Shown here: positions 29,686-64,000 of the stretch, piece by piece | Position numbering within the stretch: position 1 is the first letter of the stretch | Layout: every line of letters begins with the position of its first letter | Origin: Acanthochlamys bracteata | Taxonomy: Eukaryota; Streptophyta; Magnoliopsida; Pandanales; Velloziaceae | Direction: 5' to 3' | Length of the DNA: 64,000 bases | Assembly (NCBI GenBank): GCA_019914995.1 | Contig: CM034137.1 | Span: 6,847,155 to 6,911,154, forward strand | Notes under the pieces: generated by a model | What the model was told of the DNA's origin: nothing | The model's database searches: none | Seen by the model: only the letters and a program-made list of their open reading frames with translations | Translations under genes and position numbers: made by a program

Positions 29686-32600
29686 CTAGGAATATATTAG
29701 CGCCTCAATTGTGGAATGCGCAGGAGAGGATATACATGGTTTTGGTGGCATCTCCAAGTCGCTGATGCTTCCGCTTAACATTTCCACTACTCTACTGATT
29801 GAAGGTCGATTTGCAGGCATAGTCTGTACGCACCACAAGCCTACAATTATCATCTTTCTTGCAATTTCTTTCGTTTCGTTTGTCAATCCCCAGTTTTCCA
29901 AAGCTCCATCTTCATCAAAATGTTCATAAATCCAATGCGGAAAATATGCTTCACTGCTGTTTTGTACAGCTGTTTCGGCATTCCTGCGTCCACCAACCAT
30001 TTCTAACAACATCATACCGTAGCTATAGACATCAGACTTACTCGAAACATTGCCAAAACTCCTGGAGAAAACTTCAGGAGCAATATAACCGATGGTTCCT
30101 CGAGCATTTGTCATGGACAGAAAACTATCTTTGTGGGAGCTCAACTTTGCCAACCCAAAATCAGATATTTTGGGGCAGAAATCCTCGTCAAGCAGTATGT
30201 TATGAGGTTTTATATCGAAATGAACTATGCGAGTGTTGGATCCACGGTGTAAATATTCAAGCCCTCGTGCAACCCCAATTGCAATGTCATACAGCGTCGT
30301 GCAACCAAGTCGAGTTGATGTTTTCTTATTGTATATGTGCTTCTCTAATGAGCCATTTGGCATGAAGCCATAGATGAGAGCTCTGTTGGAACCCTCCATG
30401 CAAAAACCAATTAGAGTAACTATGTTAACATGAGAAGTTCTTCCAATGATTGAGACCTCATTGATAAAATCTTCACCATTGCCTTTGGAATTGCTTAATA
30501 CTTTAACGGCTACTTGACGGCCGTCAAGTAGTTCTCCTTTGTATACGCTGCCATAACCCCCATTACCAAGTTTATCAGTAAAGGATTTAGTCATTTTCTT
30601 GACATCTGAATATCTATATCTTCTGGGAGTGAAAGATTCATATGTTTTCAGGAAGTCCTCTATTGCCAGTGTGTTACTTTCCTTTGTCCTGAAGCACATC
30701 AAGTTGCATGGCTTGCCCTGATTGCGTCTGATTAGAACGACAAGAACACAGATTGCAAGAAATCCTCCAGCCAAACCTGTCACTACACCTAGCATCAACA
30801 ATTAATTATAAGTAGTTAGTAATATGTATCGGTCATTGTTATCTCAGCAAACATTTTTTGACAATTAAAGTTGAACTTAGTAATACGCTTATAACGACTA
30901 GCATCATATCATAGTATTCATGTCCAATCTTCATATTCATGAAGTCTAATAATATTTTTTTGGGTAGTGTAAAGTGTAATAGTTTCAATGGTGTTTCTAG
31001 CTACAAATTGCTATTTCTATATCTTTAAAACAAGATGATCGTAGAAAGATCAGTTGATAATGCTAGCAATAGCAGTGTGATACTGAAATTTTCTTAACTA
31101 GACACAATATAGGATACGAATGGAACTCATGCAAGCATTTTACATGACGTAAGAAGTTATAGAATATGCCTTTATTTGCTAAATCAGTGGTGCAATGTCT
31201 CTGAGTTCCATACAAATGCAAACAAGCTAAAGATCAAAATGGGATTAGTTGAATTTCCAAGCTAAAAACAGTTTTCATTCTTTTGAAGTGGAATACTATA
31301 GCTTTAAAGCGAGTAGCAAATTTGCATTCTAAGCAGCTTAAGGTTTGTATGTGTTCTAATAGGTTAAGTTGACTGTTAACTTAGCATACACTTGACTAAT
31401 TTTTGTGACTTCTATGTTTTAACATGATTGTCGATAAAGTGAGAGGCAAGAACAAAGTAAGAATGTTCTGTAAGTATAGCAGGTAAGGATTTCACTGCAA
31501 TTGTCTTAATTATGTTAGTCCTTAAATAATTCCAATTGGTGGCCAGACAGGGTATAGAACAAAGTTACCAGATGTCTATTTATATGTAGCATGCCTAAGA
31601 CTACCACTCTCAAATAGTCATTTCTTCTTGAACTTGGCTACTCAAAACTGGAACTTCAAGCTTAAAATGGGAATTGATCTGTTGAGTTTCCAAATTGTCT
31701 AATCTATGTTATAGAAACTATGTGCTCTTAAACTAAAGATAGACACCGACGATCTTTTCTTAAGTCGATAACAAGCATATTTACTAACTGGTTTTTATAA
31801 GTCGGTAAAATTCAGTTAGTAATGGTTCAGTTTGTAGTAGTGCACCAAAAATGTGTCCTTTTGTTGAGGTGAAAGTATTAAGTGTCACGGTATGCTTCGT
31901 ACAACTGTTGCAGAATTTCAAAGTAAGACAATAATCCAAGTTCTGAATATCAATAAAGCAGACGTACCTATAATGATTCCTAATACACTCCTTTTGGCTT
32001 CTGCAAAAATTAAAGAAATAAATAAGTAAAACAGCAGAACAAAGGGGTACTGGAACTTGGTATTCTGTATACTTACCAAATTGTTTCCATATAATACATG
32101 TATTTATCGATTAGTTACACAGCATCATGAATAACACCTATTTTGAAATCTTATGTTTGAGTTGAGACAAAGATACGCGAGGACATATATCCAAATTGTG
32201 ATTTATGCATGGATAATCTTAACTTACTTACCAGCATTTATTATACTTGAATTAAGCATGACACAAGAGTGAAAAAAATGAAAAGAACAATGCTAGGAGA
32301 GCTCAGATATGCAAAATTAAGTGATTTCTTTGCTCACAAGGAAGAAATAGAACCTTAGGTCTTGTTTGATCCATGAGATAGTACAAATGAGATAAGAATT
32401 ATTCAATTTCAGAACATGTATTCTAAATTTGGTATTGCTTTACATACGTGCATGATAAACTAATCCTAGACTTAAAAGTTTCCCACTATCGTGGGATTAG
32501 TTAGTCCCAACTAAGAATAGTATTAGATTACTATTATTTTCAACATTTTTATTCTTTTTCTTGGCATAAAATCCATTTTAAACTAATAAGAAAAAAAGTG

Positions 32601-33402
32601 GAAGAATAAAAATAAGTTTAGAATACTTTTAAAGAAAGTACAGAGTTTAAAGAAAACTAAGAGATGATGAAATCCGTAGGGATTCGATTGATACCCGGAT
32701 GACATACAGAGTTCCAAGGACGGCCATTGATAGTGCAGTTATTCCCTATAGCTTGGCAGTCGAAGCATTGTGGTTCAAGTTCAAGTTCGTGCGAGAACCC
32801 CACGGATAACAGGGAAAGGTTACTGTTGCTGTCGTTATACGAAAGCTTCAACTGAAACATTGGCGGACTTTCAGCTAAACAGCTTTTCGGAATTTCTGCA
32901 GCTTCTCTTTCACCTAATTTTGATGTATAGTAGAAATTGTAATCCTTACAAGGAGCAGCGTCACCGTATTGGAGCATGAATTCACGGCTGAAATGGTACT
33001 TGATAATTTCGCAATCAAAGTCCTGAAGCAGTATTTGGCTTATATGAGTAAGATTGACAAGAGGTGAAGGTTCAGAAAAGAGCAAGAGAAAGCTGCAGGT
33101 TGTACCCAACAAAGTACCGCTGAGCTGTTGACTAAAACGGAGTTATCAGAGTAGGAAATGTTCTTCAAACCGAACCAGTCACCTTGGCTCTTGAATTGGA
33201 TTTCCGGAATCGTTCCATTACAACGGATCAAGTGAGCTTTCAGACAATTTCCCATGCTCACGGATGTATAGAATGGTGGCGTGACTGTATGTCTGAAATT
33301 TCCACAGGTGAATTGGGAGGGAGAGCAGCAAGAAACAAATTCGAGAAAGAACACGGATAGAACGAAGAAGATGGTAGAACAACAAGGCAGAGAGTTAGCC
33401 AT
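29686..33402 (-). CDS. LRK10-like (LRK10L-2 type) receptor kinase A, frameshifted ectodomain
   Basis: Three exons on the - strand: ectodomain 33402-32695, small transmembrane-start exon 32000-31968 (EAKRSVLGIII), and TM/kinase exon 30788-29686. All junctions are phase 1 and in frame. The ectodomain has a signal peptide (MANSLPCCSTIFFVLSVFFL) and GUB_WAK_bind/WAK_assoc-like cysteine pattern (FTCGN, LIRCNG, CFDCQAIGNNC, VCHPG). The kinase exon gives a TM helix (GLAGGFLAICVLVVLI), then LGNGGYGSVYKG, VAVK (catalytic lysine), HFDIKPHNILLD (catalytic Asp; F replaces R, a non-RD kinase), DFGLAK, GTIGYIAPE and NRPSISRVVEML. Every key catalytic residue is present. A cell-surface receptor sensing wall or pathogen signals is the family expectation. 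Oddity: near 33125 the ectodomain frame shifts by one base (DNSVLVNSS continues out of frame as QLSGTLLGTTCSFL), so as read here it is a pseudogene or contains a sequence error. It is the only kinase in the cluster. Confidence 0.88.
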
Positions 33403-34180
33403 ATGAACGAATGATTGAGTGGAGTTTTGAAGTTACTTATAAAATAGAATTTTTAAAAAATAAAAAATATTTTTATTTTTTTTAAAAAATAAATTATATT
33501 TTTTTATTTTAAAAAAAATAATAAAAATATATAATAAAAAAATTTTATTTCGTAAATTTTTTTTATATTTTTTAAAATTTTAAATTAATTTTTATATATT
33601 TATAAAATATATAAAAATATAAAATAGATAAAAATTAAAAAAGTTAATAAATAATTTTTAAAACGAAAAATCAAACAGTTCCTGAATATTCGAGAAAACT
33701 TGTATCGAAACTCTACAATCAAACTACCAACAAAAAGCACCTAGAACTCAAGTATTGCTTCTTTTGATAGACTCAAGTCAACTGCGAGAAATCTCTTCTG
33801 AAACTCCTTTGGCTAAATACACGAAAAAGAAATATTGCGGACGACATTTTGAACTTGAAGGAGAACAAAAATCCAAACGAAAACATTGCTTTTTTCTTTC
33901 ATTAAAAACAAGAGACGAAAAGACCTGAGAACTTTCCTGGTTTGCAGCAAAGAAACTGGAACCAAAGTCCAGAGCAATCAGCAAAGAAATGAGGGGAAAA
34001 AGTTATTGCGATAACGATGTTAACTTTGGACAAAGGTAAGAAAAAGTAGGTTTAATATTTCCTTAAGAAGAATTTAGTGTTACTTCTAAGAATAGTAGAC
34101 ATTAGATAATGAAGATAGCTAGTCAAAGTCCACTCGCTTTGTCTCTAGCGGGCTCAAGTTTCTAATGCCACGTTGCTGTA
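33340..34180 (-). repeat. Copy 1 of a duplicated receptor 5' region (gene A start and upstream)
   Basis: The signal-peptide codons and upstream DNA of gene A recur at about 38895-39790 in the same orientation: shared blocks include gaaactctacaatcaaacta, agactcaagtcaactgcgag and caaagtccaaagcaatcag-like text. An AT-rich element (about 33430-33680) is present only here, and a MITE at 39270 only in the other copy. Confidence 0.8.
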
Positions 34181-34975: not shown

Positions 34976-34989
34976 CTATTTCAGAAAAG

Positions 34990-37467
34990 CTCGAACAACT
35001 CTCTCACGAAGCACTAGCGCCACAACTAACTCTTCATAGACATGCAACAAGCTTCGTTGGCCCGGCCCCATACCCGCAAAAAGATCGGTCAAGACAACGT
35101 AAGAGTATGATGTGAATAAGAGAACAAGGTGAGAAAATAGAAGACGAATAAGGAAGGACCAGTTAGAAGAAGGCAGGAGAAAAGATGAACTTACACATTA
35201 TGAAGAAACAAATCCCATATGTCCTATTGCTAGGGCATAACTCTTTATTTATAACTAGAGAGTTTCATTCTAATTGAAACTTTTCTACAATATAAACTTT
35301 TCTAGAAGAAGTTCAATAGAAAAATAAACTTAATTTTTTAAGAGTACATAATCGACTAAATTTCTCAAATGCCAAAATAGTGCACCTTCCACACCCCACG
35401 TTTTGCGCCCAAATCACCATTTGAATGATGACCCAGAATAATAGTTGGCGCCAAGGGCACCATTCAAATGGTGTCCTTGCCGCCATTAGCTGCACTTGAA
35501 CCTAACCATAATCCGCATGTAGAGGCAAGAACTCATGTCTTCCAATCCTCCAGGCATGCACCCGGGACACGTCTGGCACCTCGTCGCGAGCTTCCGGTTC
35601 CTACGAGATCGTTTGGCGACATTTGTCACCATAGGTACCTTTTCTGTTTTGGTACACACTGATTTCAGCTTTTTCTGTCTTCCCATTCTCTTCCTGTCAG
35701 TAGTAAAACTCTTCAAGTTTATTGCACGATCATCCTTCTCAAACTACTTATCGTATCATTCTCTTTCCACTACTTACCGCATCATTCTCTTTCCCTCCGA
35801 AAACGAACTCGTCCTCAAGTCATGTCGCTTAAAATGCAATGTTCTCTTAAAAGGACTGATCCGGCTAGATTTTTGAAAATGTAGGAGGTATAAAGCGAGC
35901 GTCCTTTAGTTGGAAAATATAAAAAATGAGGTGAATGCGCGATCCTTAAGATATGTCAAGACGGTAAGCAACTGGACCAAAGCGGGTGATGATGTGAAAG
36001 GGACCAAAATATCAGTAACACAATTTAAAATTTTTTCCTAGCAGTCACAAATTGTTGACGATATGGCTGAAGCTTTAGAAAGACCATATTGTTAACTGAA
36101 ATTTTCAACTCTCGACGGTGAGCATCAGCTTTTTGTTTCATCCTAACTTAGATACGTTGAAGATGAAACTTCAACTCTTTCAAAATTGCATCACGTTCTC
36201 TCAACTAGTGCCCCAACTCATCTGAACAAAACAGCCGAGAGGCAAAAAAAATTAGTGGAGGTGGGGGTTGCCTATAGACTACTTTGAATTAGCTGGTGTT
36301 AGTCCCGAGTGTGTACTTGTGTTGTAAAAAAATCTTGCCCAATGATGCTCTCTTGCAAAGCAATGAAAGTAAGTCTCAAGACCTCTATTGATAACTTCCG
36401 ACTATCCATCTGATTAAGGATCATATGCCCAACTGAGATGTAGTACAGGGCCTTGTAGCTTATTGAACTCCTACCAAATAGAAATCAGAAATATGGGATC
36501 CCTATCGGATACAATGGAGTTAGAAGCACCATATAGACTGACTATTTCTTTGGCAAATACAGTTGCAACCTGAGAAGCTGTGAAGGGATATTTTAAAGGT
36601 ATAAAATGAGCAAATTTGGAGAGACAGTACACCACAACTAAGATAATATCTCGACCTACCGATGAGGGTAGTCCCTCTATGAAGTCCATAGAGATATCTA
36701 TCCAGATTCTATCAGGAATTGGTAATGGCTGAAGTAATCCCACGGGCTTAAGTGATAAGGACTTTGCTTTAGCACAGGTGATGCATTCTTTGATGTAGCG
36801 TAGAACATCCATAGAAAGTCCCGGCCAATAAAATTGTTCGCTAATCCTTTTGTATGTCCTGAATTATCCACCGTGCCCTTCAATAGCTGAGTTGTGTGCC
36901 TCAAATAAACTTTGATGCCGCAAGGCATTATCCTTTGGAATCCAAAGTTGTCCATTATGACCAAGAAAACTATGTACTATGGACAACTCTACGTACTCAA
37001 GCAGTAAACCTTAGCTATTTTTCAGAACAATTGGTACTCTTTGCTGCAGTTGAGCAAGAAGTTGATGTTCATAACTGCAAATGTGTAGGAGAACATTGAT
37101 GGATAATCATCGCCTCGGCAGTTTAACGCAATCTTTGTCGTGATTGTTTAACATTTCAGCAACGACGAGGGAGAGTGTGCTAGTGGTATAAGATATCTTT
37201 AACAGTGTAATTGATTCCAGCGATGATATGGTTAGAGAACTGTTGTTAGTGCAGGTGAGATATAAGTATGGGCTGCCATAGTAGGTCTGTGAGTTGTTTA
37301 TCATAGTTGAAAGCCAGAACGGGTAGTTGACTTCAATTCCTGCATCGCGATAGGTAACCGGCGAAGCACAGCGTGGAGAAGCCATTTATGTTCTTGAAAA
37401 TGAAGGTTATGATCATGATAATCAAGAAGAGTGTTCTACTACTATTGCTTAGGAAGAGAGTTGTCAT
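34990..37467 (-). pseudogene. Ectodomain pseudogene B, split by a gypsy fragment
   Basis: Inverted homologue of the intact exon C at 54870. In - orientation it starts at 37467 with MTTLFLSNSSRTLFLI, runs through a frameshift near 37385 into SPVTYRDAGIEVNYPFWLST and SPYLYLTCTNNSSLTI, and shows further changes (a lost Cys in TYYGSPY, another frameshift). At about 36990 it is interrupted by retroelement sequence and resumes at about 35107 with the counterpart of C's FAGTEPGQQSL / ELVVAPVLRERVV region, ending near 34990. The third quarter of the exon and the donor site are lost. It lies 620 bases downstream of D, as C lies downstream of D'. Confidence 0.85.
35113..36975 (-). mobile_element. Ty3/gypsy fragment with integrase, inserted in pseudogene B
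   Basis: On the - strand broken frames give an integrase zinc-binding region (FYWPGLSMDVLRYIKECITC), then the catalytic core (RIWIDISMDFIEGLP, VYCLSKFAHFIPLKYPFTA, IVSDRDPIF), a broken QSDGQSEV-type block near 36420, and a chromo/GAG-linker-like tail near 35870-36200. Everything 5' of integrase (LTR, gag, protease, RT) is absent. The left 700 bases (35113-35870) are presumably 3' untranslated and LTR sequence. Stops and frameshifts show it is dead. Confidence 0.8.
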
Positions 37468-38086: not shown

Positions 38087-38861
38087 CAACATGGCAATGC
38101 TGAGACTGCGGTCCATCGACGCAGTAGCAGACGAAGTTATTAGCCTCACTGAATCCACACCGTCCGCCGGAGTTTTCACACGGCGAGCACATCTCGCCGC
38201 CTTTAACTTTGGCCCAGCTCAGTTCAAATCCTTTCTGAACAATTTCTCCATAAAACTCACTAACGTTCATCGCCGGAACCAAAGACTGTTGCAGCACCGG
38301 AATCTTAACTACATCTGCACATATATCGCTCCAGTTGTGCTCCATAGGGATTGCGTGTTCTATATAAGCGTACGACGTATTACCGCCGGAGTTTAAGCAC
38401 TTGATGCTACCGCGTTGCGGCCCACCAGTGCAGTTTAAGAACACGGTGAGGTTTGCATCGGACGGCGTGTACTGTAGCAGCAGGTGTGCGGCGAGTGTTA
38501 TGTTTCTGAGATTTTTCGGACATGTCTCGTTTGGATAGAGGGCGACATCGTTTAGTTTCAGATTAACGGTTTTATCCTGATTGTCAATGCTCGTGACTGC
38601 AAATTCTTCTCCGGCGAGTTGGATAACAGGGGTGTTGTTAATGCACTGGAGTTTTAAGTCGGAGTAGCCGCAGAAAGAGGGAGTGGAAGTTTCTGCGTCG
38701 ACGGAAATCCAAAACGGGTATGCTACCGTGAAGTTGTTCCCGCAGTTAAACGAATGGCAGCCGGGGACTTCAGTGGAGTTTATAACGATTCCGGTGATAG
38801 ATATCAGAGGGAGTAGGGAGATGTAGAAGATGAAGAGAAGTAGGTAATAGTAATCTTGCAT
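38087..38861 (-). CDS. LRK10-like ectodomain exon D (no kinase attached)
   Basis: Intact ectodomain exon of an LRK10L-2-type receptor: signal peptide (MQDYYYLLLFIFYISLLPLI), then the GUB_WAK_bind-like domain (CHSFNCGNNFTVAYPFWISV, SFCGYSDLKLQCIN), many N-x-S/T glycosylation sites, and the C-terminal WAK_assoc block (GFELSWAKVKGGEMCSPCEN, SGGRCGF, FVCYCVDG). The coding frame continues past 38087 to a stop at 38016, but the last trustworthy base is at the donor GTTG|GTACGT. The donor falls after the first base of a codon, exactly as in gene A. No TM or kinase exon occurs before pseudogene B 620 bases downstream. It may be read as a secreted protein of about 280 aa, be spliced to a distant kinase, or be dead. 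The 258 inner residues are almost identical to D' at 52065. Confidence 0.8.
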
Positions 38862-38894: not shown

Positions 38895-39790
38895 GATTCT
38901 GAGAGACTCGAGAAACAAAATCGAGAAAGAACAAGGATAGAACGAAGATGGTAGAACAACAAGGCAGAGAGTTAGCTATATAAATGAACGAATATTCAAG
39001 AACTTATATCGAAACTCTACAATCAAACTACCAACAAAAAAGCACCTAGAACACGAAGCTCAAAGAATTGCTTTTTTTGATAGACTCAAGTCAACTGCGA
39101 GAAATCTTTTAAAAGAACAAAACGAGTGATTTTACCGTTCTTCTGTAACCCCTTCGACTGTAATACACGAAGCAGACGTACTGCGACATTTTCAACGTGA
39201 AAGAGAATATTAAAGCTATAATAATTGCTTGCTGAGCACGTTGTGGTTAGGTCTGAGCAGTGGGACTAAGGGTGTGTTTATCAACACCCCAAAGTGAATT
39301 TTTTTGAAACTCAATTCTAACATAAAATATATATAAAAATTTAAATAAAATTATTTTATTAATAATTTTTTTTAAAATTATTTTTAATACTTACTATAAA
39401 TATTTTATTAATAATTTTATTTTTTATTAAATATTTTTTATTTTTTATTTAATTTTTTAATTTGGATGAAGTGAGTTTCAAAAAAACTCACTTTACCCAC
39501 AAGATAAACACGCCCTAATGGAATTTCTTTCTTTCGTAAAAAACAAGATACCTGAAAACTTTCCTTTTTTGCAGCTAAGAAACTGAAAGCAAAGTCCAAA
39601 GCAATCAGCAAAGAGTTCCTCAACAAAGAAAACAAGGGGAAAAAAGATACTGCGGTAATGATTTCAACTTTGAACGAAGGGTAAGAATAGTAGTTTATTA
39701 TTTCCTTCGGAAGAAACTAGTGTTACTTAAAAAAAGAGTAGTAGGTAATGAACGTAGCTATCAGTCAAAGTCTACTAGCTTTCGTCTCTA
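38895..39790 (-). repeat. Copy 2 of the receptor 5' region, fused upstream of D
   Basis: About 35-45 bases upstream of D's ATG the sequence switches to a copy of gene A's first exon start and upstream DNA (gctaactctctgccttgttg in - orientation, with A's ATG changed to ATA). D therefore carries an A-derived upstream region, while D' does not. A 246-bp MITE interrupts this copy. Confidence 0.8.
39270..39515. mobile_element. Tourist-like MITE, TAA target duplication
   Basis: Ends gggtgtgtttatc and gataaacacgccc are near-perfect inverted repeats, and TAA is duplicated at 39267-39269 and 39516-39518. The interior is AT-rich and non-coding. The family recurs at 48543, 50426 and 58175. Confidence 0.85.
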
Positions 39791-40088: not shown

Positions 40089-40305
40089 TGATAAAAATAT
40101 TTGATTCATTTCTATATTTAGAATGCTTACTTTAAAAAATTTTATTTAAAAAGATTAGATTTTATTTTATTCTAAAAATATTTGATTTGGATTGATTTTT
40201 AGAAAGATTAGATTTTATGAATATTTAACTTTTGAAAATTTTGAGTGTATATATATGTGCTCATATCAATAAAGAAAAATAAGTTATTGAATATAATTCT
40301 CTACA
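40089..40305 (+). repeat. 5' LTR of the copia element
   Basis: 217 bases, TGATAAAAATATT to TCTCTACA, followed directly by the tRNA-Met-type primer site at 40306. Confidence 0.93.
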
Positions 40306-43300
40306 TGGTATCAAAATCACTATTGCTCTAACGAGCTCTATCTCTTCTCAAATCTTTTTTTTTTTTTCTAACTCAGTAATTTCAAATACTGTCGATGGCC
40401 ACTATCTCTACATCATCTAGTAATTCTTTTATTATTACTCAAGACTTCAATTAATAATTGATTGCCATCAATATTGTCGCTCAAGCTCCATTGAAACTCA
40501 ATGATACAAAATATTTTTCCTGAAAGTTTCAATTCAACACTTTTCTTATTGGTTTTGATCTCATTGGCTTCATTGATGGATCTAAATCGTGTCCACCACC
40601 CACTATTACTACAGATAGTTCAGTAATTATCAATTCAGCTTATATTTACCGGAAACGTTAAGATCAGTTGATCCTCAATACATTCATTTGATCTATCTCT
40701 CCAAACATTATTCCATTCATTGCCGGTGCCATTACCTCCAGTGATGCTTGGCATATTCTTGCCAATACTTATGCCAAGCCAACACACGGTCACCGTCTAC
40801 AAATTCGAAGTCATCTAAAAAATCTTCAAAAGGGTTCTCAAAGTGTTACTGAATTATGAAGAATTAAAGGGTATGCCGATGAACTTGCACTACTTGCTAC
40901 CCCTATGGATGCCGAAGACATACTTGAAAAAGTTCTAGATGGTCTTGGCGTTGAATTTCATAATCTTGTTGTTGCTCTCCAAGCTCGCGAGACCCCAATC
41001 TCACTTGAGGAACTACATGAAAAACTCCTCACTTTTGAAGCCACTCATCGCAATGTAATATCAAAGGCTTAACCAACACTAGCGACTGCTAATCCAGCAC
41101 ACAGAAATTCAAGGCCTCGTTCCTCTTTCAACTCTGATCATACAGGCACTTTTCGTCCCACTATATCTTCCAACACCAGCTCCTCCATGCCAACATCTAA
41201 TAGTGATCGCCTTTTACCAATACCATATCTTGGTCGTTGTCAAATATGTGACATTCAAGGACACTCAGCTAAGCGGTGCCCATCCTTTCGTCTAGTACCG
41301 ATCAATCAAGTGCCAACCAACCAAGTGTCAATCAATCGCGAATCCGGAACAAATCTTACCTCATGGCAGCCACGAGCTAACTTTGCAGCTAATACCGGCG
41401 CAGAAACTCCTTCTTGGCTACTTGATAGTGGTGCCTCCCATCACGTTACAAGCGATCTCAACAATCTCTCACTTCACTCTCCCTACAATAGTTCCGACGA
41501 CATTATAATTGAAGATAGCACGGGTTTACCAATCACTCACATTGGCTCCACTTTTCTACCTTCCTCAACTCATAATTTTACACGCAATAATGTTCTTTGT
41601 GTGCCAAGCATGAAAAAAAATTTAATCTCTATTTCTCAATTTTGCCTCACCAATAATGTTTCCGTTGAATTCTTACCACATTCTTTTCTTGTGAAGGACC
41701 TTCGTATGGGGGCACAACTTCTTCAAGAGCGAACTAAAGGTTGCGTTTATGAGTGGCCAATCACACCAATCCAATCTTCACCATTACTTACTCTATCCAG
41801 TGCCAAAATCTCTTCATCCGAATGGCATCATAGACTAGGGCATCCATCTTTTAAATCTTCAAACATATCATGTCTAATGGTCAGTTACAACTATCTACTC
41901 CTTTATCTACAACAATTATTTATAACGATTGTCATTTCAATAAAAGTTACAAATTACCATTTTCTAAATTCACTTTTACTTCTTCTAAACCTCTTGAAAT
42001 CATTTTCTCTGATGTTTGGACTTCACCTATTATATCTCATGATGGTTTCAAATAATATGTTATTTTCGTCGATCACTTCACCAAATATATATGGTTCTAC
42101 CTACTCAAAATAAAATCTAATATGCATGACATCTTTATTCGCTTCAAAGCTCTTGTAGAAAATTATTTTTCCCATAAAATCATTAATCTTTATACCGACA
42201 ATGGTGAAAATATCAAAGTTTTGAAATTTTTCTCTCTACAAATTGTATTTCTCATCTCACCACTCCCCTACATACTCCAGAACATAATGGATACTTTGAA
42301 CGACGACACCATCACATTTTTGAAACTGGTCTCTTTCTTCTTTCTCATGCATCTCTCCCACTCACAAAATGGTCTTTTGCCATCCATCTCATTAATCTAT
42401 TCCAAACTTCAATTCACTTCTCCATTTGAAAAAATATTTTGCCATCCACCTAACTATTCCAAACTTCGAGTATTTGATTGTTTATACTATCCTTGACTTC
42501 GTTTTTATTCACCTCACAAACTTACCCCTCGATCCAAACCATGTATTTTTCTCGGCTATTCTCTTACACAAAGTACATATCTATGTCTTGACAATTATAC
42601 TTCCAAAATTTATGTGTCTCGTCACGTTGAATTTGTTGAATCTTTTTTTTCTTTTTTCTCTCTTCAATGTAATCTTTTCCGTCATGAATCCACTACTGTT
42701 GACACATGGGTTCCGTACTCTCCTCCTATTTTCACCATTTCAATTTCTACTCCATTCTCAGTGCCACTCATAACACCATCTAACGTATCACCACCCCCGC
42801 ACGAAGAAGACCCTCTAATAATCCAACTTTACCATCTACATTACTTGTGCCCCATTCTACCAATCATACTAAGTCTTTCAGTGAACCCCATACTTCAACC
42901 AACAATAACCATCCCATGCAAACTAGATCCAAGAACAACATCCACAAGCCCATTCAAAAACTCAACTTAACAGCTCAACTATCCGCCTCTGATGACTTAG
43001 AACCAACAAATACGATCCAAACCCTCAAAGATCCTAAATGGCATCGGGCCATATCCGAAGAGTTTAATGCACTTGTTCGAAAATCACTTGAGAACTTGTT
43101 CCATCTAACTCCTCACAAAATATTGTGGGATGTAAGTGGATTTTTCGCATTAAACGACTATCTGATGGTTCTATTGATAGGTACAAAGCACGTGTGGTTG
43201 CTAAGGGATTTCATCAACGACCCGGAGTGGACTATAATGACACATTTAGTCCATTTATCAAACCAACAACTGTTCGTCTTGTTCTAAGTCTTACCATTAG

Positions 43301-44541
43301 TAAAGGGTGGTCACTTCGCCAGCTTGATGTTAATAATGCATTTCTTCAAGAACACCTATCTGAAGACGTCTACATAGCTCAACCATCCGGATTCATTGAT
43401 CAAGATTTTTTCACTCATGTTTGCAAACTTCGCAAAGTTATTTATGGTCTCAAACAAGCACCACGAGCTTGGTATCACGAGCTCAAAATATTTTTACTTG
43501 ACTCTGCCTTCATCAACTCTCATGCGGACAACTCACTCTTTATTCTTAACACAGGTAGACATCTCATTTACTTACTTATCTATGTTGATGATCTGATCAT
43601 TACAGGAGACAGTCAGAATATGGTAAAACGATTTGTGGAGCTTCTAGCCCAACGATTCTCATTAAAAGATCTTGGACCATTGTCATTCTTCCTTGGTGTT
43701 AAAGTTATTCCACACAATCATGGCCTTTTTCTCTCTCAACGACGGTACATTACCGATCTCCTTGTCCGAACTAAAATGGTCGATGCCAATCCCGTCATGA
43801 CTCCCTTTATCCACCAGTTCAATATTGACACTTCATACCGACACAGTTTTGTCTGACCCAACAGAATTTCGGACGTTAGTTGGGAGCCTTTAATATCTGT
43901 CTGTCACACGACCGGATATTGCATTTATAGTGAACAAGCTCTCTCAATTCATACATCGGCCAACAACTAAGTATTGGACAGTCGTCAAACGCCTCATTCG
44001 CTATCTATCTGGTACATTGAATTACGGATTATCTTATATCGTGATTCACCTTTATTTTGCATGCATTCTCGAATGCTGACTGGGCTGATAACAAAGATGA
44101 CTCTACCTCCACTAGTGTCTATGTGGTGTACTTAGGCCGCAATCTAATCTCCTAGAGTTCAAAGAAACAACAGACTGTTGCTCGTTCCTCTACGGAAGCT
44201 GAATATCGTTCTGTTACCTCTACTGCTGCAGAACTCAGTCGGATTTGCTCTCTTCTATCTGAGCTTGGTGTTCAACTTCCAACCACTCTTGTCATATATT
44301 GTGATAATATTGGTGCTACACATTTGTGCTCCAATCCAGTTTTTCATTTTAGGATGAAATATGTTGCTGTTGACTTTCACTTCATTAGGGACAAAGTTCA
44401 AAATGGTGCTTTGCGCGTTACTCATATTTCATCACAAGATCAATTGGCTGACGCACTCACTAAACCACTTTTTCGGATGCGCTTTCTTCTTCTTCGGTCC
44501 AAGATTGAAATCTCCGATCGGAGCTTCATCTTGCGAGGGTA

Positions 44542-44758
44542 TGATAAGAATATTTCATTCCTTCCTATATTTAGAGTGCTTAATTTAGAAAGATTTTATT
44601 TAAAAAAATTAGATTTTATTTTATTTTAGAAATATTTAATTTGGATTGATTTTAGAAAGATTAGATTTTATGAATATTTAACTTTTGAAAACTTTGAGTG
44701 TATATATATGTGCTTATATCAATAAAGAAAAACAAGTCATTGAGTACAATTCTCTACA
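44542..44758 (+). repeat. 3' LTR of the copia element
   Basis: 217 bases, TGATAAGAATATT to TCTCTACA, followed by the ACTGC duplicate. Confidence 0.93.
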
Positions 44759-47722: not shown

Positions 47723-48476
47723 CTGGAGAACAAGTTCCAGTCACCATTCCATAGGAGCAATAGCAAAGCTGATGATTGGAAGATACCGGACTGTATCCAC
47801 AAATGCCTCCAGAAAGCGTGCAGTTGCTACACCACCCTTTTCCAGCTTGCCATTTCAACGAAAACCCCTCGTGCATGGCACCAACCAAATTTCCGTTCTC
47901 CAACTCTTGCTCTGCAACCATATCCATCATAACTAATGAAGTAGAACTACAGTTCTCCGGCGCATCAGTAGCACTATTTTCAATCTTATAGTAAGAATTC
48001 CCACACTCTGTAATCTGATAGACGGATTTGCTCGAGCTCGGTTTAGTGCAGTTGAAATACACTGTCAGATTAAAATCACGCCCCGAGAAATCATACAAGG
48101 AAGAATCTATGTTGATATTCCTGTGTAGGACATTACAGAACTTATCATCATCAACATCTCGATCAAGTAAACTGATGATATGATTCATGTAGTCGATACC
48201 GAGAACTTTGTACACGCTGCCGGGGGAGATTTGAATCGTGAGGGTTGAAGTTTTGTTATCGCAGTGAAGGTAGTACTTCGGATGGCCGCAGTAAGCCGGG
48301 CAGTCTTCTATTCGGAAGGGGTAACCGATAACAACACTGGAGTTGCCGCAGACATGCGACTTCGGTCGGCATGCCTCGTACAGCGAAGACTCGTCGTTGC
48401 CGAAGACGACAATGATTGGCATACTTGAGAGCGTGATCAGCAGAAGAAGGAAGAGATTGAAGTCCGAATGTTTCAT
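47723..48476 (-). CDS. LRK10-like ectodomain exon E (no kinase attached)
   Basis: Intact exon of an LRK10L-2-type receptor: signal peptide (MKHSDFNLFLLLLITLSSMP), GUB_WAK_bind-like domain (CRPKSHVCGNSSVVIGYPFR, YCGHPKYYLHCDNK), a spacer with N-glycosylation sites, and the WAK_assoc-like end (GFSLKWQAGKGWCSNCTLSG, GICGY, LCYCSYG, CSPG). It ends at the donor CCAG|GTATGT, after the first base of a codon as in gene A; the reading frame itself would run on to a stop at 47667. No TM or kinase exon is found in the 9 kb before the next ectodomain exon (D). A MITE sits at about -66 to -277 from the ATG. E' at 63348 is its inverted homologue. Confidence 0.8.
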
Positions 48477-52064: not shown

Positions 52065-52839
52065 ATGCAAGACTACTATTACCTACTTCTCTTCATCTTC
52101 TACATCTCCCTACTCCCTCTGATATCTATCACCGGAATCGTTATAAACTCCACTGAAGTCCCCGGCTGCCATTCGTTTAACTGCGGGAACAACTTCACGG
52201 TAGCATACCCGTTTTGGATTTCCGTCGACGCAGAAACTTCCACTCCCTCTTTCTGCGGCTACTCCGACTTAAAACTCCAGTGCATTAACAACACCCCTGT
52301 TATCCAACTCGCCGGAGAAGAATTTGCAGTCACGAGCATTGACAATCAGGATAAAACCGTTAATCTGAAACTAAACGATGTCGCCCTCTATCCAAACGAG
52401 ACATGTCCGAAAAATCTCAGAAACATAACACTCGCCGCACACCTGCTGCTACAGTACACGCCGTCCGTTGCAAACCTCACCGTGTTCTTAAACTGCACTG
52501 GTGGGCCGCAACGCGGTAGCATCAAGTGCTTAAACTCCGGCGGTAATACGTCGTACGCTTATATAGAACACGCAATCCCTATGGAGCACAACTGGAGCGA
52601 TATATGTGCAGATGTAGTTAAGATTCCGGTGCTGCAACAGTCTTTGGTTCCGGCGATGAACGTTAGTGAGTTTTATGGAGAAATTGTTCAGAAAGGATTT
52701 GAACTGAGCTGGGCCAAAGTTAAAGGCGGCGAGATGTGCTCGCCGTGTGAAAACTCCGGCGGACGGTGTGGATTCAGTGAGGCTAATAACTTCGTCTGCT
52801 ACTGCGTCGATGGACCGCAGTCTCAGCATTGCCATGTTG
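52065..52839 (+). CDS. LRK10-like ectodomain exon D' (inverted twin of D)
   Basis: Same architecture as D: signal peptide, GUB_WAK_bind-like domain and WAK_assoc-like C-terminal cysteines, donor GTTG|GTACGT at 52839/52840 after the first base of a codon; an unspliced reading stops at 52895. The amino-acid sequence up to the donor differs from D at a single residue that I can find (PSVANL here, PSDANL in D), and the DNA is identical over long runs at synonymous sites. About 45 bases upstream and 60 bases downstream of the exon the two copies diverge strongly. No kinase exon occurs before C at 54870. First ectodomain exon of the right arm. Confidence 0.8.
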
Positions 52840-54869: not shown

Positions 54870-55758
54870 ATGACAACTCTCTTCATGAACAATAGTAGCA
54901 GTAGAACTACCTCACTCTTCTTGATTTTCATGATCACAACCTTCATTTTCAAGAACATCAATGGCTTCCCCGGCTGTCCTTCTCCGGTTACCTGTGGCGA
55001 CACAGGAATCGAAATCAACTACCCATTCTGGCTTTCAACTACTACAAACAACTCACAGACCTACTGCGGCAGCCCTTACTTAAATCTCACCTGCACCGGC
55101 AACAGTTCTCTAACCATATCCATCGCCGGAACCAATTACTCTGTCAAAGCTATCGATTATAACACTAATATACTCTCCGTCGTCGACGCTGAAATGTTAA
55201 GCAATCGCGACAGAGGTTGCGTTAAACCGCCGAGGAACAACTTAACGTTCAGGGGCGATGATTATCCGTCGATGTTCTCCTACACTGCTGCAGTTACCAA
55301 CATCAACTTCTTGCTCAACTGCAGCACAGACCACCCATTGTTCTGGGAAACAGCTAAGATTTACTGCTTGAGCACGGAGAGCAGTTACTCTTACGTCGTC
55401 ATGGCCGATCCGTTCGCGGGTACGGAGCCGGGCCAACAGAGCTTGTCGGATGTCTGTGAAGAGTTAGTTGTGGCGCCGGTGCTGCGTGAGAGAGTTGTTC
55501 AAGAATTCAAAGTTTTGAATGAGACGTACGGTGGATTGTTGCGTGAAGGGTTTGAATTACGGTGGGGAGATTATAAGGCAGTAGGCGACGGATCATGCCG
55601 GGAATGCGTAAACTCCGGCGGACTGTGCGGGGGTAAGAAGACCGGCGCCGGCGTTGAAGAATGGGAGTTTGCTTGCTTCTGTGCTGACGGATTGCACGGT
55701 CGAGATTGTGGCAATGGTAGTGATCAACAACAAACCATCCGAAGCAGCACTAGTCCTG
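54870..55758 (+). CDS. LRK10-like ectodomain exon C (no kinase attached)
   Basis: Intact ectodomain exon: signal peptide at residues 1-33 (TSLFLIFMITTFIFKNI), GUB_WAK_bind-like domain (GCPSPVTCGDTGIEINYPFW, YCGSPYLNLTCTGN), N-glycosylation sites, and a WAK_assoc-like C-terminal block (GFELRWGDYKAVGDGSCREC, SGGLCGG, FACFCADGLHGRDCG). The donor CCTG|GTATGT at 55758/55759 follows the first base of a codon, matching gene A; read through, the frame stops at 55778. It is the intact counterpart of pseudogene B. The 5.4 kb before F contain no TM or kinase exon that I can recognise. Confidence 0.8.
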
Positions 55759-58406: not shown

Positions 58407-58956
58407 GTATTGACTTTTCAACTCCTAGTACTTTAATTTTTTTATTATAATTTTTTATTTTATATTTTTAAAACTCTTCCATAATATTTTAAATTAAAAA
58501 AATTTTAAAATAACAAAATAATTCTATCGTAAAATTTTATTATTATTTAATTTTAATATTTTTCTATCAAAAGAATTAAGCTTGTTTTTAAAAACATTGA
58601 AAATAATTTTCTATTCAAAAAAACTTTTTCTAAGAGCATTTTTCAAGCATCTAAAGTCTTTTTCTTAAATGTCTTTAACAAAGGTAATGAACTAGAAAAT
58701 GGCAACAACTTGGGCATATCATATAGTTATAAAAGTTTTGATAAGTACAAATAGTAAACAAACGAAAATTTGCAAGTCTTGGTCAATCAATCAATTACGG
58801 GTAGGAAGTTGGTCTATTTGGTAGTAGTTGGGGAATGAGATATTTAGACATATTTGATTAATATGGAATTTCTTCTATCAAGAAGTTATTTTCGGATAGT
58901 TTCTAAAGTTTAAACCTCATTTTTCTGGAAGTCATTTTCAGAAAATTTTAACGTAA
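58407..58956. other. Intergenic DNA, no gene seen
   Basis: It contains an AT-rich relic at about 58425-58650 and featureless sequence after it. Confidence 0.4.
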
Positions 58957-59248
58957 GTGCGTATTTCAAATGTCCGTAATTGAATTGTGAAGTAAAAATT
59001 AGAAAATAGAATTTCTTAAAAAATAAAGTAGAAGTAGAGTTTAGTATCTGTGTTTTAATAGATTTTGAAAATATGTTGAAGATTAAAAAATATAGTTGTA
59101 TTGAAAAGTGTGCAAATAAAAAAGTTGGAATTAGAATTAAGTATGTGAAGGTAGAGTTCTAAATTTCTTATGTAATTGAAATATATGAAGTGCTTGAAAC
59201 TCAAAACTGACGAAAGAAAGTGGAGTTACGAACGTTTGAAACATGCAC
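58957..59248. mobile_element. Tourist-like MITE, first of a back-to-back pair
   Basis: Ends gtgcgtatttcaaatgtccg and cgtttgaaacatgcac, with TAA on both sides (58954-58956, 59249-59251). Confidence 0.75.
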
Positions 59249-59255
59249 TAACTAA

Positions 59256-59549
59256 AGACGTGTTTCAATCGCCCGTAACTTCACTTTTTCCCGCCAAATT
59301 TTGAGTCTCAAATAATTTATTGTTTCAATTACACAAGGAACTCAGAATTTCACTTCCACGTACAGAACTTTAGTTCCAACTTTTTTATTTACATACTTTT
59401 AATACAACTATATTTTTCAATTTTCAACACACTTTCAAAATCTATTGAAACACAAATACTGAACTCCACTTTCACTTTATTTTTCAAAAAATTTTACTTC
59501 CTATTTTTTACTTTCACAAAATTCAGTTACGGATATTTAAAACACGCCC
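59256..59549. mobile_element. Tourist-like MITE, second of a back-to-back pair
   Basis: Ends agacgtgtttcaatcgcccg and gatatttaaaacacgccc, with TAA at 59253-59255 and 59550-59552. It lies in opposite orientation to the neighbour at 58957, with only the two TAA copies and one base between them. Confidence 0.75.
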
Positions 59550-59552
59550 TAA

Positions 59553-61183
59553 ATGAGTGTCACTCGAATAAAACACCTTAGAAGGAAAACTAACAATGCC
59601 AGCTTATAAAATAAATTTTTTTAAATTAAAAATATTATTATTTTAGTTTTATTATTAGTTTAAAAAATAATAAAAATAAATAATTAAAAAAATTATTATA
59701 TAGAATTTTTTTATATTTTTTACAATTTTAAATAAATTTTTTTAAAATATGTAATAAATATATTTAAAAATATGAATAAAAAATTAAAAAATTATTTTAG
59801 AATAGTGTTTGCCAAACATCCCCTCCCTTAAATTGAGAGTAAGTATGAATAAAAAGATAAAAAAATCAATTGCTCTTTATTAATTTTTTGTATAAATTAA
59901 CAAAAATAAGGGAAGGTAATCATTCTTTTATTACTTTATTATGTAAATTATGAAGTAAAAGTAGTAGTAGGTGCGCTGAGGTTTTCAAAATTACCCTCTC
60001 CAAAATCAATAGTTAAATTAGTAATTAAATCAATAATTTTTTAACCAATATTGATAATTAAATTGATAAGTATAATTAGAATGATGGTTTATATATTTAT
60101 TAACCTAATTTCTAGATTCGATTTACATGTTAACAATTTTATTTATATATTTATTTACCTATTCAGATTTTTTTAATAAATTCATCTTACTTTTGCTTAA
60201 TTTTTTAGTTTAGCTTATATATTACTTTCCTTAATTTATTATATTTTACTTAATTATTATATTTGATTAATTTTTATTTAATTTTATATCTTTTATAGAA
60301 TTAATTTTTTTGTCTGGCATATATAGTACCTAACAATATTCACCTGCTACTATTAAAGTTAATTTTATAATTTTTATTTTAATAAATTTTAATTATTAAA
60401 AAATTAATTTAACTTTGAATCGATTTAATAAATAAATAAATTAATATAGATATTTTTATCTACATAAATATATAAATAAAATTAAAGTTGAATGATTTCA
60501 TGGAAAGAATTGATGGGAAGGGATCCATTAATCCATATTGTCAACTTAACTTCTACTGAACGTTTTGAAACTCCTGCCTCTTGGAATAACCTGTAACTGG
60601 TTGAAAATAAGCAACTTACTGATTGCCACTTAGCAATGGCAAAAGATAATTCTATGGAGTCTCCACTCCAGATGGGATGCGGATGACTAGGTTAAACCAA
60701 GCACTCTTTCAAATGACAAAAATCCAAGAAAAACTCATCTACCTCAGTTTAGGGCGTATTTTAATCGCATAAAAATAAGTTTATTAAAATAAGTTTCATA
60801 AAAATAAAATTAAATAAAAAAAATTCAATCTGATAATTGAAATATATAAAACAAATTTTAAATTAGAGTTTTGGTGAAAATAAAATTTGGTGTAAAAATA
60901 AAATAAAATTTAGACTATCAATTGAAACTCGCAAAGAAATAAAAATTTAAATTTTGGAAGAAAAAAATAGAATTTGGTAGCATTTAAAACATGCCAACGG
61001 TGTTTTGTGATCTCTCACCAATAACATCCTCTTCCTAGTTTCTAGTACATCTCCATAAACAATCAACAACTGAGAACAGAAAGAGCGTTGCAACCTTCAC
61101 CAAACTCTTTTATTTCTTCTCTAATTACTCCACACTAATCTTTTCTCTGTAGCAACCATTTCTCATATCTTCATCTTTCCTCT
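59553..61183. other. AT-rich DNA upstream of F
   Basis: It contains AT-rich relics at about 59590-59820 and 59990-60500, and a Tourist-like relic at about 60755-61000 (ttagggcgtattttaatcgc ... atttaaaacatgcc) without a clear duplication. The last 180 bases, pyrimidine-rich and of balanced composition, are the probable promoter and leader of F. Confidence 0.45.
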
Positions 61184-61934
61184 ATGAGCACCATCACCTT
61201 CCTCTTTCTCTTCATATCCTTCTCTGCAACTAACATTCACACTAGTACTACTTCACCAACATGTACACCGATCAACTGCGGCGCAGTCGAAATCCATTAC
61301 CCTTTCTGGACAGCGAACACTTCGACCCAAAACTGCGGTGGGTACCCTTCCATGGAAATACACTGCTCTGACAAAACTCCATTCCTTCGCCTTCCCTTCG
61401 GCAACTATATGATAACTTCCATCGACTACAACAGGCGAACACTCTCCATTACTGACACCGATACCGATACTTGCTCTCTGCCAATTCGCAATATCACTAT
61501 GGATTCTAACTCTCCTTTGCGGTTCACTGATAAGACTACGAACATAACGTTCCTGCTTCACTGCAGCTTACCAAAACTAGCTATACCGCTGTTGTGCGGT
61601 GCCGCAGAACAACGGTTGGTGTCTTACGTTGTGCTTGGAGAACCACCATTGTTGCAACTTGGGTTGTTTTGTGATTGGGGAGATGGGTGTCAGAAAGTGG
61701 TAGTGGCGCCGGTATTGAGTTCTGCTGTAGGAGAGATAATTGCGGGGGAAGCAGAGAGGGCGGTAGCGGAAGGGTTTCAACTTGGTTGGGAAGATGGCGG
61801 TGCCGATGAACGGTGCCGGAGTTGTGAGAGCAGTGCGGGTGAGTGTTTGTTTAAGGAGAAGGACGAGTTTGTTTGCTTACGAGACAGAGTTGGTAGTGCG
61901 GGGAATGCAGTAGAGGTCAGTCAACGTCAACCCG
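61184..61934 (+). CDS. LRK10-like ectodomain exon F (no kinase attached)
   Basis: Intact exon: signal peptide (MSTITFLFLFISFSATNIHT), GUB_WAK_bind-like domain (CTPINCGAVEIHYPFW, NCGGYPSMEIHCSDKTPFLR), N-glycosylation sites (NIT), then a C-terminal block (GFQLGWEDGGADERCRSCES, SAGECLF, FVCL). The usual final Cys pair is weaker here: the expected F-x-C-x-C reads FVCLRDR. Donor CCCG|GTACGT at 61934/61935, again after the first base of a codon; unspliced, the frame runs to a stop at 62050. No kinase before E' 1.4 kb on. No counterpart in the left arm is seen, unless the degenerate remnants are its relatives. Confidence 0.78.
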
Positions 61935-63347
61935 GTACGTCTTTGATTGTTTCTTTCCTAACTGAATTTTACCGTGCGTTTTTAAACTATTTATCATTAC
62001 AAATTTTATCCCATCTCTATGTTCACCTAAAAAGAGAGACAGGATTTTAAAATGCTCATAATTAAAATAATAGAAGACTTTAAATCATGTTTGGCATAAT
62101 TTATTAAAAAATTATAGATTTTCTAAATTCAAAAAATTTGATAGTGCTTAAAAATTCTTTTAAAGAACTTAATACATTTAAAATATATATATAATTTATA
62201 ATTCTTACAAGTACAATTTTTAAAAATTTTAAAATTTTTTCAAAAGTTTACTTTTTGAGAATTTCAAACATGCTTTAAAATCGCAAATTTTGTAAAACTT
62301 TTACAATATTATATAATTTTGAAGACGTTTGAAAGTGATTAAAATAAAATTTATTTTAAAATATAATTTTTTTGAAGTTTTTAAAATATAAGTATTAATT
62401 TTTTACTAATAAAAATTAATATATAAAATTTATATGATATATGATTTATTTGTATTTTTTAAAATTTTTAAAATTTTAAAAAATACTATAGATAAAATGT
62501 AAGAATTTTCTTGTGTCCCTTTTATGTTAGATTTTAATTTTTGTAGATTTTGTAGACATGCTTAGGAAACTTTGACTAGATTCAACGAAATCAAGAAACA
62601 TTGACCCTATCGATTTAGTATACTTTATACGTACTTTATATTCTTTTCATTTTCAATTTAAAAAATATTTTATAATATTTTCAAAACAAATTTCAAATTC
62701 TAAAATTCTAAAAAGTTATACGTCATAAGATTGTTATATATATAATTTTATAATTTTTTAAATTAAAAGTAAACTTATTTGTAAAAATATTTAGCAAAAT
62801 TCTTTTTACTACAATTTTTAAGCAATCTCAAACTACTCCTTCACTACTTATAACTTCAGTTGGATTACTGCATTACTTGTAACTTCAGTTAGATAGCCAT
62901 GCATTTGTAACGTGTTATAGTTCCATCATTGAATGAAGTTTAACATTCGAAGAACCTTATCAAACTTTTCATTCATAAAATAAAATCTTCACTCTCAATT
63001 TTTCATCTTCCTTTTGGAAAACTGTTACTGCGGCTGCATAGATGAACTGTCAAAGATGTTTTAATTAACTGAAATCCTTAATTACATTATAAATATTCCA
63101 GAAATACATGCATTGACCTCACTAAAGAAAAAAAAAGGTTTTAAACTCCACATAAAAAGTTTCCATTATCACCCACCAATCCCTGTCTCTCTGCTGACTT
63201 TCTGAATTGTTTTTTTTTCAAAAAGAAAATTTGCAGACAACTTTGAATACGAAATCAATCAATTCTTCATCCTAAAGAATTTAAACAAATATACAACTTC
63301 ATGATCAACCACTTGCTTCTTCTGTTCATTTGTTTTCTTCTCAACAA
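61935..63347. other. Spacer between F and E'
   Basis: No kinase or TM exon is seen. AT-rich relics lie at about 62080-62275, 62280-62520 and 62640-62830. The last 60 bases are homologous to the leader of E (acaacttcatgatc and following). Confidence 0.5.
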
Positions 63348-64000
63348 ATGAAACATTCCAACTTCAATCCTTTCCTTCTTCTTCTTCTGCTAAGCACCCT
63401 CTCATGTATTCCAATCATTGTCGTCTTCGGCAACGACGAGTCTTCGCGGTACGAGGCATGCCGACCGAAGTCGCATGTCTGCGGCAACTCCAGTGTTGTT
63501 GTCGGTTACCCCTTCCGAATAGAAGACTGGCCGGATTACTGCGGCCATCCGAAGTACTACCTTCACTGCGATAACAAAACTTCAACCCTCACGATTCAAA
63601 TCTCCCCCGGCAGCGTGTACAAAGTTCTCGGTATCGACTACATGAATCATATCATCAGTTTACTTGATCGAGATGTTGATGATGATAAGTTCTGTAATGT
63701 CCTACACAGGAATATCAACATAGATTCTTCCTTGTATGATTTCTCGGGGCGTGATTTTATTCTGACAGTGTATTTCAACTGCACTAAACCGAGCTCGAGC
63801 AAATCCGTCTATCAGATTACAAAGTGTGGGAATTCTTACTATAAGATCGGAAATAGTGCTACTGATGCGCCGGAGAACTGTAGTTCTACTTCATTAGTTA
63901 TGATGGATATGGTTGCAGAGCAAGAGTTGGAAAACGGAAATTTGGTTGGTGCCATGCACGAGGGGTTTTCATTGAAATGGCAAGCTGGAAAAGGGTGGTG
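63348..64000 (+). CDS. LRK10-like ectodomain exon E' (cut by window end)
   Basis: Open from the ATG at 63348 to the window edge, without a stop. Signal peptide MKHSNFNPFLLLLLLSTLSC, then the same domain as E (CRPKSHVCGNSSVVVGYPFR, YCGHPKYYLHCDNK, GFSLKWQAGKGW). About ten residues differ from E; one removes a cysteine present in E (IEDCPAYC in E, IEDWPDYC here), which is probably an extra, unpaired Cys in E since the family usually has only the CGHP cysteine at this place. The final cysteine block and donor lie beyond the window, so whether kinase exons follow cannot be seen. Confidence 0.8.
   Translation, partial: MKHSNFNPFLLLLLLSTLSCIPIIVVFGNDESSRYEACRPKSHVCGNSSVVVGYPFRIEDWPDYCGHPKYYLHCDNKTSTLTIQISPGSVYKVLGIDYMNHIISLLDRDVDDDKFCNVLHRNINIDSSLYDFSGRDFILTVYFNCTKPSSSKSVYQITKCGNSYYKIGNSATDAPENCSSTSLVMMDMVAEQELENGNLVGAMHEGFSLKWQAGKGW

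What the first reader, a model, noticed from the sequence alone, without database searches (positions are those of the whole stretch)
29686..64000. Receptor cluster laid out like a bank of alternative first exons
Seen: five intact or near-intact ectodomain exons plus A (E, D, A on -, D', C, F on +) end in a GT donor after the first base of a glycine codon, the same phase as A's acceptor for its TM exon. On the - strand E, D and B all point towards A's single TM and kinase exons at 29.7-32 kb; on the + strand D', C, F, E' point to DNA beyond 64 kb. Known: LRK10-like receptors have an ectodomain exon, a tiny TM-start exon and a kinase exon. Inference: several ectodomains could be spliced, by choice of promoter, onto one shared kinase per arm, like clustered protocadherins. 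The dull alternative is stranded duplicated exons, made into secreted proteins or not expressed.
Basis: partly seen in the sequence, partly recalled or inferred. Interest (0 to 1): 0.75.

Follow-up and report, generated by a model that had tools for sequence, protein, structure and literature searches.

The report
Swappable sensor exons shared by kinases
In this flowering plant a row of alternative "sensor" exons appears to feed a single receptor kinase gene, as annotated in other flowering plants, and matching copies of those exons point the opposite way at a second, different kinase, so one set of sensors may be wired to two signalling outputs.

Summary
The named donors and the 32000 acceptor are exact, but A is frameshifted and B is broken. 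The arms end in different kinases: left LRK10L2-like (HFD, non-RD), right LRK10L1-like (HRD, RD).

The dull reading is unlikely for the right arm. In eight other angiosperm genera, annotated isoforms combine very different ectodomains with one identical kinase, and the ectodomain types here group with theirs.

More surprising: at four loci here the two kinases stand head to head with matching ectodomain exons (82-99% identical), though the kinases are about 35% identical. At three loci the match is nearly confined to the exon, and the arms group by locus, so these exons are being homogenised between two receptors. Oil palm shows the same (98-99%), date palm less, Tasmannia not.

No RNA from this plant was available. 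The left arm is half decayed and less certain.

The parts
29686..30788 (-). TM + LRK10L2-like kinase exon of the left arm (HFD catalytic motif, non-RD)
31968..32000 (-). 33-nt mini-exon (phase 1 to phase 1) that would join an ectodomain to the left TM/kinase exon
32695..33402 (-). A: ectodomain exon next to the left kinase, frameshifted copy of A'; donor kept
34985..37467 (-). B: decayed copy of C, with gypsy-like sequence inside (element named from recalled motifs)
38087..38861 (-). D: intact ectodomain exon, donor TTG|GTACGT, 99% identical to D'
38913..39184 (-). A-type 5' region (89.7% like 68394-68674, A' upstream and first codons, ATG lost) now upstream of D
47723..48476 (-). E: intact ectodomain exon, donor CAG|GTATGT, pair of E'
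52065..52839 (+). D': intact ectodomain exon of the right arm
54870..55758 (+). C: intact ectodomain exon of the right arm
61184..61934 (+). F: intact ectodomain exon of the right arm
63348..64000 (+). E': intact ectodomain exon, continues to 64107 outside the window (L009 1-107); then A' (L009 4605-5328), mini-exon (5509-5535), TM exon (5631-5894), LRK10L1-like kinase exon (5971-6929), all +

Best explanation
The right arm is a variable-first-exon cluster of an LRK10L1-type receptor kinase. D', C, F, E' and A' are alternative first exons, each giving a hydrophobic leader and a GUB_WAK-like ectodomain. Transcription that starts at one of them is spliced from its phase-1 donor over the later ectodomain exons to the shared mini-exon, TM exon and RD kinase, giving five receptors with one cytoplasmic output. 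The left arm is the mirror image on an LRK10L2-type, non-RD kinase: a partly decayed bank in which D and E are intact. Matching exons of the two arms are repeatedly homogenised, most simply by gene conversion between inverted copies, so the same ectodomains are offered to two kinases. Shown: anatomy, one kinase per arm, intact frames and donors, purifying selection on E, homogenisation as a pattern. Shown only as annotation in relatives: different ectodomains on one kinase. Inferred: promoter choice and splicing here, and that the sharing matters for signalling.
For: One kinase on the right, after all five exons, same strand; all five joined frames are open through the kinase (674, 712, 666, 669 and 657 aa for D', C, F, E', A'). 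The best 120 rows of three protein searches gave 343 proteins; 26 groups share an exact 200-aa block and 11 of these hold very different ectodomains on one kinase: Elaeis (2 LRK10L1 sets, 1 LRK10L2), Phoenix (2), Asparagus, Magnolia, Tasmannia, Mercurialis, Jatropha, Cornus (LRK10L2) (details in 39, 47, 48). In one Elaeis set four full-length ectodomains share 411 identical C-terminal residues, in one Phoenix set five. Tree of 60 ectodomains: type A 100/100, E 100/99, C/D/F 98/95 and G 91/93 each hold this plant and other angiosperms. E' against its counterpart at C7: dN/dS 0.45-0.50, synonymous excess p 1e-4 to 6e-4, like A' beside the kinase (0.50); E/E' 0.28. Homogenisation: arm-to-arm dS 0.006 (D), 0.075 (E), 0 (C14), 0.11 (C13), 0.02 (C7 G), against 0.52 and 0.66 for the C13-C14 kinases and 0.61-0.64 for their ectodomains. 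The near-identity starts between 38 bp inside and 37 bp before the ATG and ends 60-303 bp after the donor at D, C13 and C14. Grouping the LRK10L2-arm exons of C13 and C14 is rejected, p 5e-9 (group chosen after the tree was seen). Oil palm LRK10L1 and LRK10L2 isoforms: ectodomains 98.3% and 99.1% identical, kinases 34.9%.
Against: No transcript from this plant was seen. Implied introns are long for a 195-Mb genome: 16.7, 13.7, 7.6 and 5.4 kb for D', C, F, E' and 15.7 and 6.1 kb for E and D. The NCBI isoform models were taken as annotated; the reads behind them were not seen. At C7 both E copies carry single-base frameshifts and the G copies look unconstrained between arms (dN/dS 1.4 on 18 changes). 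D/D' differ by only 2 coding changes, so they say nothing on constraint. A/A' dN/dS 0.84. D and E on the left lack most of their counterparts' upstream DNA. Donors are inherited, so agreement in phase is weak evidence alone. Matching of LRK10L1 and LRK10L2 ectodomains is not universal: date palm pairs are 85.8% and 55%, and the compared Tasmannia pairs 24-26%.
Confidence: 0.78

Rival explanations
1. Stranded duplicated exons: only A' (right) is used; the others are leftovers of tandem and inverted duplication, unexpressed or decaying.
For: A and B are broken, D and E lack most upstream DNA of their counterparts, C7 copies of E carry frameshifts and the C7 G copies show no constraint.
Against: D, D', C, F, E, E' are all intact with donors kept; E is under purifying selection between C12 and C7; the same ectodomain types sit on one kinase in annotated isoforms of palms and others, which leftovers would not do.
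Confidence: 0.12
2. Each ectodomain exon makes its own secreted or short membrane protein by reading into the intron; some act as decoys of the kinase-bearing receptor.
For: Reading past each donor meets a stop within about 6-40 codons.
Against: The donors are kept, and relatives are annotated as kinase fusions. It may happen as well as, not instead of, fusion.
Confidence: 0.07
3. The matched arms are recent independent inverted duplications at each locus, not gene conversion in an old pair.
For: C7 has inverted arms of 15.9 kb at 97.7%, as a fresh inverted duplication would give; E/E' match over 1.4 kb with further collinear pieces.
Against: At C13, C14 and D the shared tract is nearly confined to the exon, with unrelated upstream DNA, and head-to-head LRK10L1/LRK10L2 order is shared by four loci whose kinases diverged long ago. 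Repeated exon-sized inverted copying is hard to tell from conversion.
Confidence: 0.2
4. Assembly artefact: collapsed or doubled haplotypes create the mirrored exons.
For: Near-identical inverted copies are a known assembly hazard; the C7 E arms differ by homopolymer-length changes.
Against: The copies sit beside different kinases and different flanks, at graded identities (82-99%), and oil palm shows matched ectodomains in another assembly.
Confidence: 0.03

Closest known systems
Arabidopsis AtLRK10L1 (AT1G18390), two promoters giving transcripts L1.1 and L1.2 (Shin et al. 2015, as cited in PMC12479429; that passage and the reference entry seen, original not held)
   Same: Same receptor kinase family; alternative starts on one kinase; mini-exons (known to me here from the cited title only).
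   Different: Two starts there; five intact first exons here, and a mirrored bank on a second kinase. Whether the two Arabidopsis transcripts differ in ectodomain was not seen.
Multiple-variable-first-exon clusters of vertebrates: PCDH, UGT1, GCNT2 (abstract of PMC1885805 seen)
   Same: Tandem variable first exons feeding one constant region.
   Different: Plant receptor kinases; two opposed clusters with matched variable exons and different constant regions. That abstract says conversion does not predominate in Ugt1, Gcnt2 and Ugt2, in contrast to Pcdh.
LRK10L1/LRK10L2 genes of oil palm and date palm (NCBI models)
   Same: The same four ectodomain types on one LRK10L1 kinase; in oil palm, matched ectodomains on an LRK10L1 and an LRK10L2 kinase from contigs of equal length, presumably one chromosome.
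   Different: Only proteins seen; exon order and head-to-head placement in palms not seen; in date palm the LRK10L2 match is 85.8% at one pair and 55% at another.

Membership tests
Variable-first-exon cluster | Several homologous first exons in tandem, each with its own start codon and donor | tested here: met
   5 intact on the right, 2 on the left
Variable-first-exon cluster | One constant region downstream on the same strand, same splice phase | tested here: met
Variable-first-exon cluster | Transcripts joining different first exons to the constant region | not testable with these tools
   no RNA of this plant; met by annotation in relatives
Variable-first-exon cluster | A promoter for each first exon | tested here: inconclusive
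   E' keeps about 246 bp of upstream similarity with C7; D and E on the left do not keep theirs
LRK10L1-type receptor kinase (right arm) | Ectodomain, mini-exon, TM exon, RD kinase; best matches named LRK10L1 | tested here: met
LRK10L2-type receptor kinase (left arm) | TM plus non-RD kinase; best named matches LRK10L2 | tested here: met
LRK10L2-type receptor kinase (left arm) | Intact ectodomain directly upstream | tested here: not met
   A is frameshifted; D and E are the intact ones further up
Concerted evolution between inverted copies | Copies more alike within a locus than between loci although the arrangement is older | tested here: met

The most novel reading that the evidence does not exclude
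An old flowering-plant arrangement in which one menu of alternative ectodomain exons is kept in two mirrored copies, one feeding an RD kinase (LRK10L1) and one a non-RD kinase (LRK10L2), and gene conversion between the copies keeps the two receptors' ectodomains in step, so that each ligand reaches both kinases, perhaps as a matched receptor pair, while promoters and kinases evolve separately.
Probability: 0.5. Interest if true: 0.87.

Novelty: new variant of a known kind. Interest (0 to 1): 0.77.

Why it matters
It would give plants a clustered-protocadherin-like way to vary a receptor's sensor while keeping its kinase, seen as isoforms in public annotation of monocots, magnoliids and eudicots. 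The mirrored bank makes a testable claim about how two kinase types share ligands, could explain why some annotated proteins chain several ectodomains onto one LRK10L kinase, and offers a natural domain-swap set for finding LRK10L ligands.

Tried and rejected
Rejected: a kinase per exon (none found). Rejected: both arms share one kinase type (35% identical, different catalytic motif). Rejected: A as the intact working exon of the left kinase. Considered and not adopted: the agreement of donor phase as proof, because the exons are homologous. A bacterial-type promoter scan was run on plant DNA and tells nothing. Long annotated models were scanned for chained ectodomains: 3 of 10 show two or more GUB_WAK_bind stretches (P0016 Cocos 3, P0143 Cinnamomum 2, P0157 Nyssa 2); they fit tandem first exons chained by annotation software but were not used as proof, and P0143 also holds two kinase stretches. 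Dropped before the count of 11: the Penstemon pair (two species), the poplar group (its A-type forms are truncated) and a group with no pair long enough to compare; the remaining groups differ little in their ectodomains. One Cornus isoform (P0216) joins one exon later than the others, without the mini-exon residues. A genome-wide list of LRK10L2 kinases was not obtained.

Literature: ten searches of the open PMC library (at most 20 rows listed each) and passages or outline of six papers (PMC12479429, PMC7313013, PMC11018527, PMC2174465, PMC1885805, PMC11085297) showed nothing on mirrored LRK10L ectodomain banks. One search (LRK10L, head-to-head, receptor-like kinase) gave 0 papers; (alternative first exon, receptor-like kinase, ectodomain) gave 1, on another receptor; (LRK10L, gene conversion) gave 3, of which I looked into one. 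Subscription papers are mostly not covered.
Full report
Check of the observation. One search finds ATG-to-donor frames for E (48476-47723, -), D (38861-38087, -), D' (52065-52839, +), C (54870-55758, +) and F (61184-61934, +), all ending after the first base of a codon at GT. One search places the left mini-exon at 32000-31968 and the TM/kinase exon from 30788. Two corrections: A lacks 7 bp against A', which breaks its frame, and 9 bp more in frame, and B is a decayed copy of C with gypsy-like sequence in it (element named from recalled motifs).

What lies to the right. The window is part of a held genome of 195.5 Mb, so I fetched 80 kb more. E' ends at 64107 with the same donor as E. Then come A' (68605-69328, intact), a 27-nt mini-exon (69509-69535), a TM exon (69631-69894) and one kinase exon (69971-70929), all + (L009 coordinates are these minus 64000). 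A tblastn with both kinases at E 1e-3 over the window and these 80 kb finds no further kinase. So each arm has one kinase. They differ: 35% identical, HRD on the right and HFD on the left; their best named matches are LRK10L1 and LRK10L2 proteins. The link of non-RD kinases to immune receptors is recalled, not tested.

Do such banks work elsewhere? A search with A' plus the right kinase returned annotated isoforms. In oil palm, isoforms X1, X2, X3 and X5 share 411 identical C-terminal residues and have ectodomains that are 26-33% identical where they align; in date palm five isoforms with 22-34% do the same. The identical part begins where the mini-exon residues would start; exon borders in palms were not seen. 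The best 120 rows of each of three searches gave 343 proteins and 26 groups sharing an exact 200-residue block; 11 groups, from 8 genera, combine very different ectodomains with one kinase, 9 of LRK10L1 and 2 of LRK10L2 type (details). Not every pair within these groups is distant: one Phoenix pair is 83% and one Elaeis LRK10L2 pair 52% identical. These are annotation; the reads behind them were not seen. A passage in PMC12479429 says AtLRK10L1 has two promoters and two transcripts.

Types. A maximum-likelihood tree of 60 ectodomains gives four types: A (100/100), E (100/99), C/D/F (98/95) and G (91/93; G is known here only at the sister locus C7). Each holds this plant and other angiosperms; A, E and C/D/F reach magnoliids or eudicots, G is firm only in monocots (poplar joins it at 93/74). 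One Elaeis and one Phoenix set carry all four on one kinase. Within the fetched stretches and at E 1e-4, the C12 bank has A, E and C/D/F but no G, and the C7 bank has A, E and G but no C/D/F.

Mirror arms. Four loci here hold an LRK10L1 and an LRK10L2 kinase head to head, with ectodomain exons between them (C12, C7, C13, C14). Ectodomains of the two arms match: D/D' 99.1% over 887 bp, E/E' 93.7% over 1415 bp, A/A' 94.1% over 781 bp, B/C 82% over 618 bp, C14 99.1% over 1121 bp, C13 92.4% over 866 bp, C7 97.7% over 15.9 kb. At D, C13 and C14 the match covers the exon and little else: it starts between 38 bp inside and 37 bp before the ATG and ends 60-303 bp after the donor; only D has a further 84-87% stretch downstream. 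Synonymous divergence between arms is 0 (C14), 0.006 (D), 0.02 (C7 G), 0.075 (E) and 0.11 (C13), but 0.53 for C/B, while between C13 and C14 it is 0.52 and 0.66 for the two kinases and 0.61-0.64 for ectodomains. A tree grouping the LRK10L2-arm exons of C13 and C14 is rejected (p 5e-9; the group was named after the tree was seen). Oil palm shows the same: LRK10L1 and LRK10L2 isoforms from contigs of equal length have ectodomains 98.3% and 99.1% identical and kinases 34.9%. It is not universal: date palm pairs are 85.8% and 55%, and the Tasmannia pairs that I compared 24-26%. Head-to-head order in palm was not seen.

Constraint. E' against C7 E: dN/dS 0.45-0.50 with a significant synonymous excess, the same as A' against C7 A beside the kinase (0.50); E/E' 0.28. 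Against: A/A' 0.84, C7 G arms 1.4, and frameshifts in both C7 E copies, at different homopolymers, so possibly consensus errors.

The left arm. E and D are the only intact ectodomains found for its kinase, which is itself under constraint (dN/dS 0.19 against C7a). D now stands behind an A-type upstream segment whose own ATG is lost, and E keeps a detectable 58 bp of the upstream shared with E'. This may be promoter replacement or decay. A copia-like element of 4.7 kb sits between D and E (named from recalled motifs).

Mechanism, with status. Alternative first exons on the right: anatomy shown, use inferred from relatives. The same on the left: possible, about even. Homogenisation of matching exons: shown as pattern, gene conversion inferred. 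Purpose of sharing one sensor set between an RD and a non-RD kinase: conjecture.

Limits. Synonymous rates use the Nei-Gojobori method in my own script, with a simple binomial test. Introns implied reach 16.7 kb, long for such a genome. The plant is unnamed; its A-type ectodomains group with those of monocots (100/99). A genome-wide LRK10L2 search did not complete.

Noticed in passing
window 40089-44758: Copia-like retrotransposon frames (recalled motifs) flanked by direct repeats of about 217 bp (91% identical), lying between D and E.
   Followed up: partly
window 36470-36960: Gypsy-like integrase frame (recalled motifs) inside the broken exon B.
   Followed up: no
window 38913-39184: D on the left arm stands behind a copy of the A' upstream region and first codons whose ATG is lost: a possible promoter swap.
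   Followed up: partly
C7 locus, L017-L022: Inverted repeat with 15.9-kb arms at 97.7% holding E- and G-type ectodomain exons, with two LRK10L2-like kinases on one side (one frameshifted) and LRK10L1 on the other.
   Followed up: partly
C12 and C7 banks: Complementary content: C12 has C/D/F types and no G found, C7 has G and no C/D/F found, as if types were divided after the duplication.
   Followed up: partly
L027-L029 (C14, C13): Simple one-exon versions of the head-to-head pair, each with an almost exon-sized inverted repeat.
   Followed up: yes
window 58956-59550: Imperfect palindrome of about 600 bp (78%) between C and F.
   Followed up: no
window 5494-5823 and 8904-9215: Two small cysteine-rich secreted proteins that look like lipid-transfer-type proteins (recalled resemblance).
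   Followed up: no
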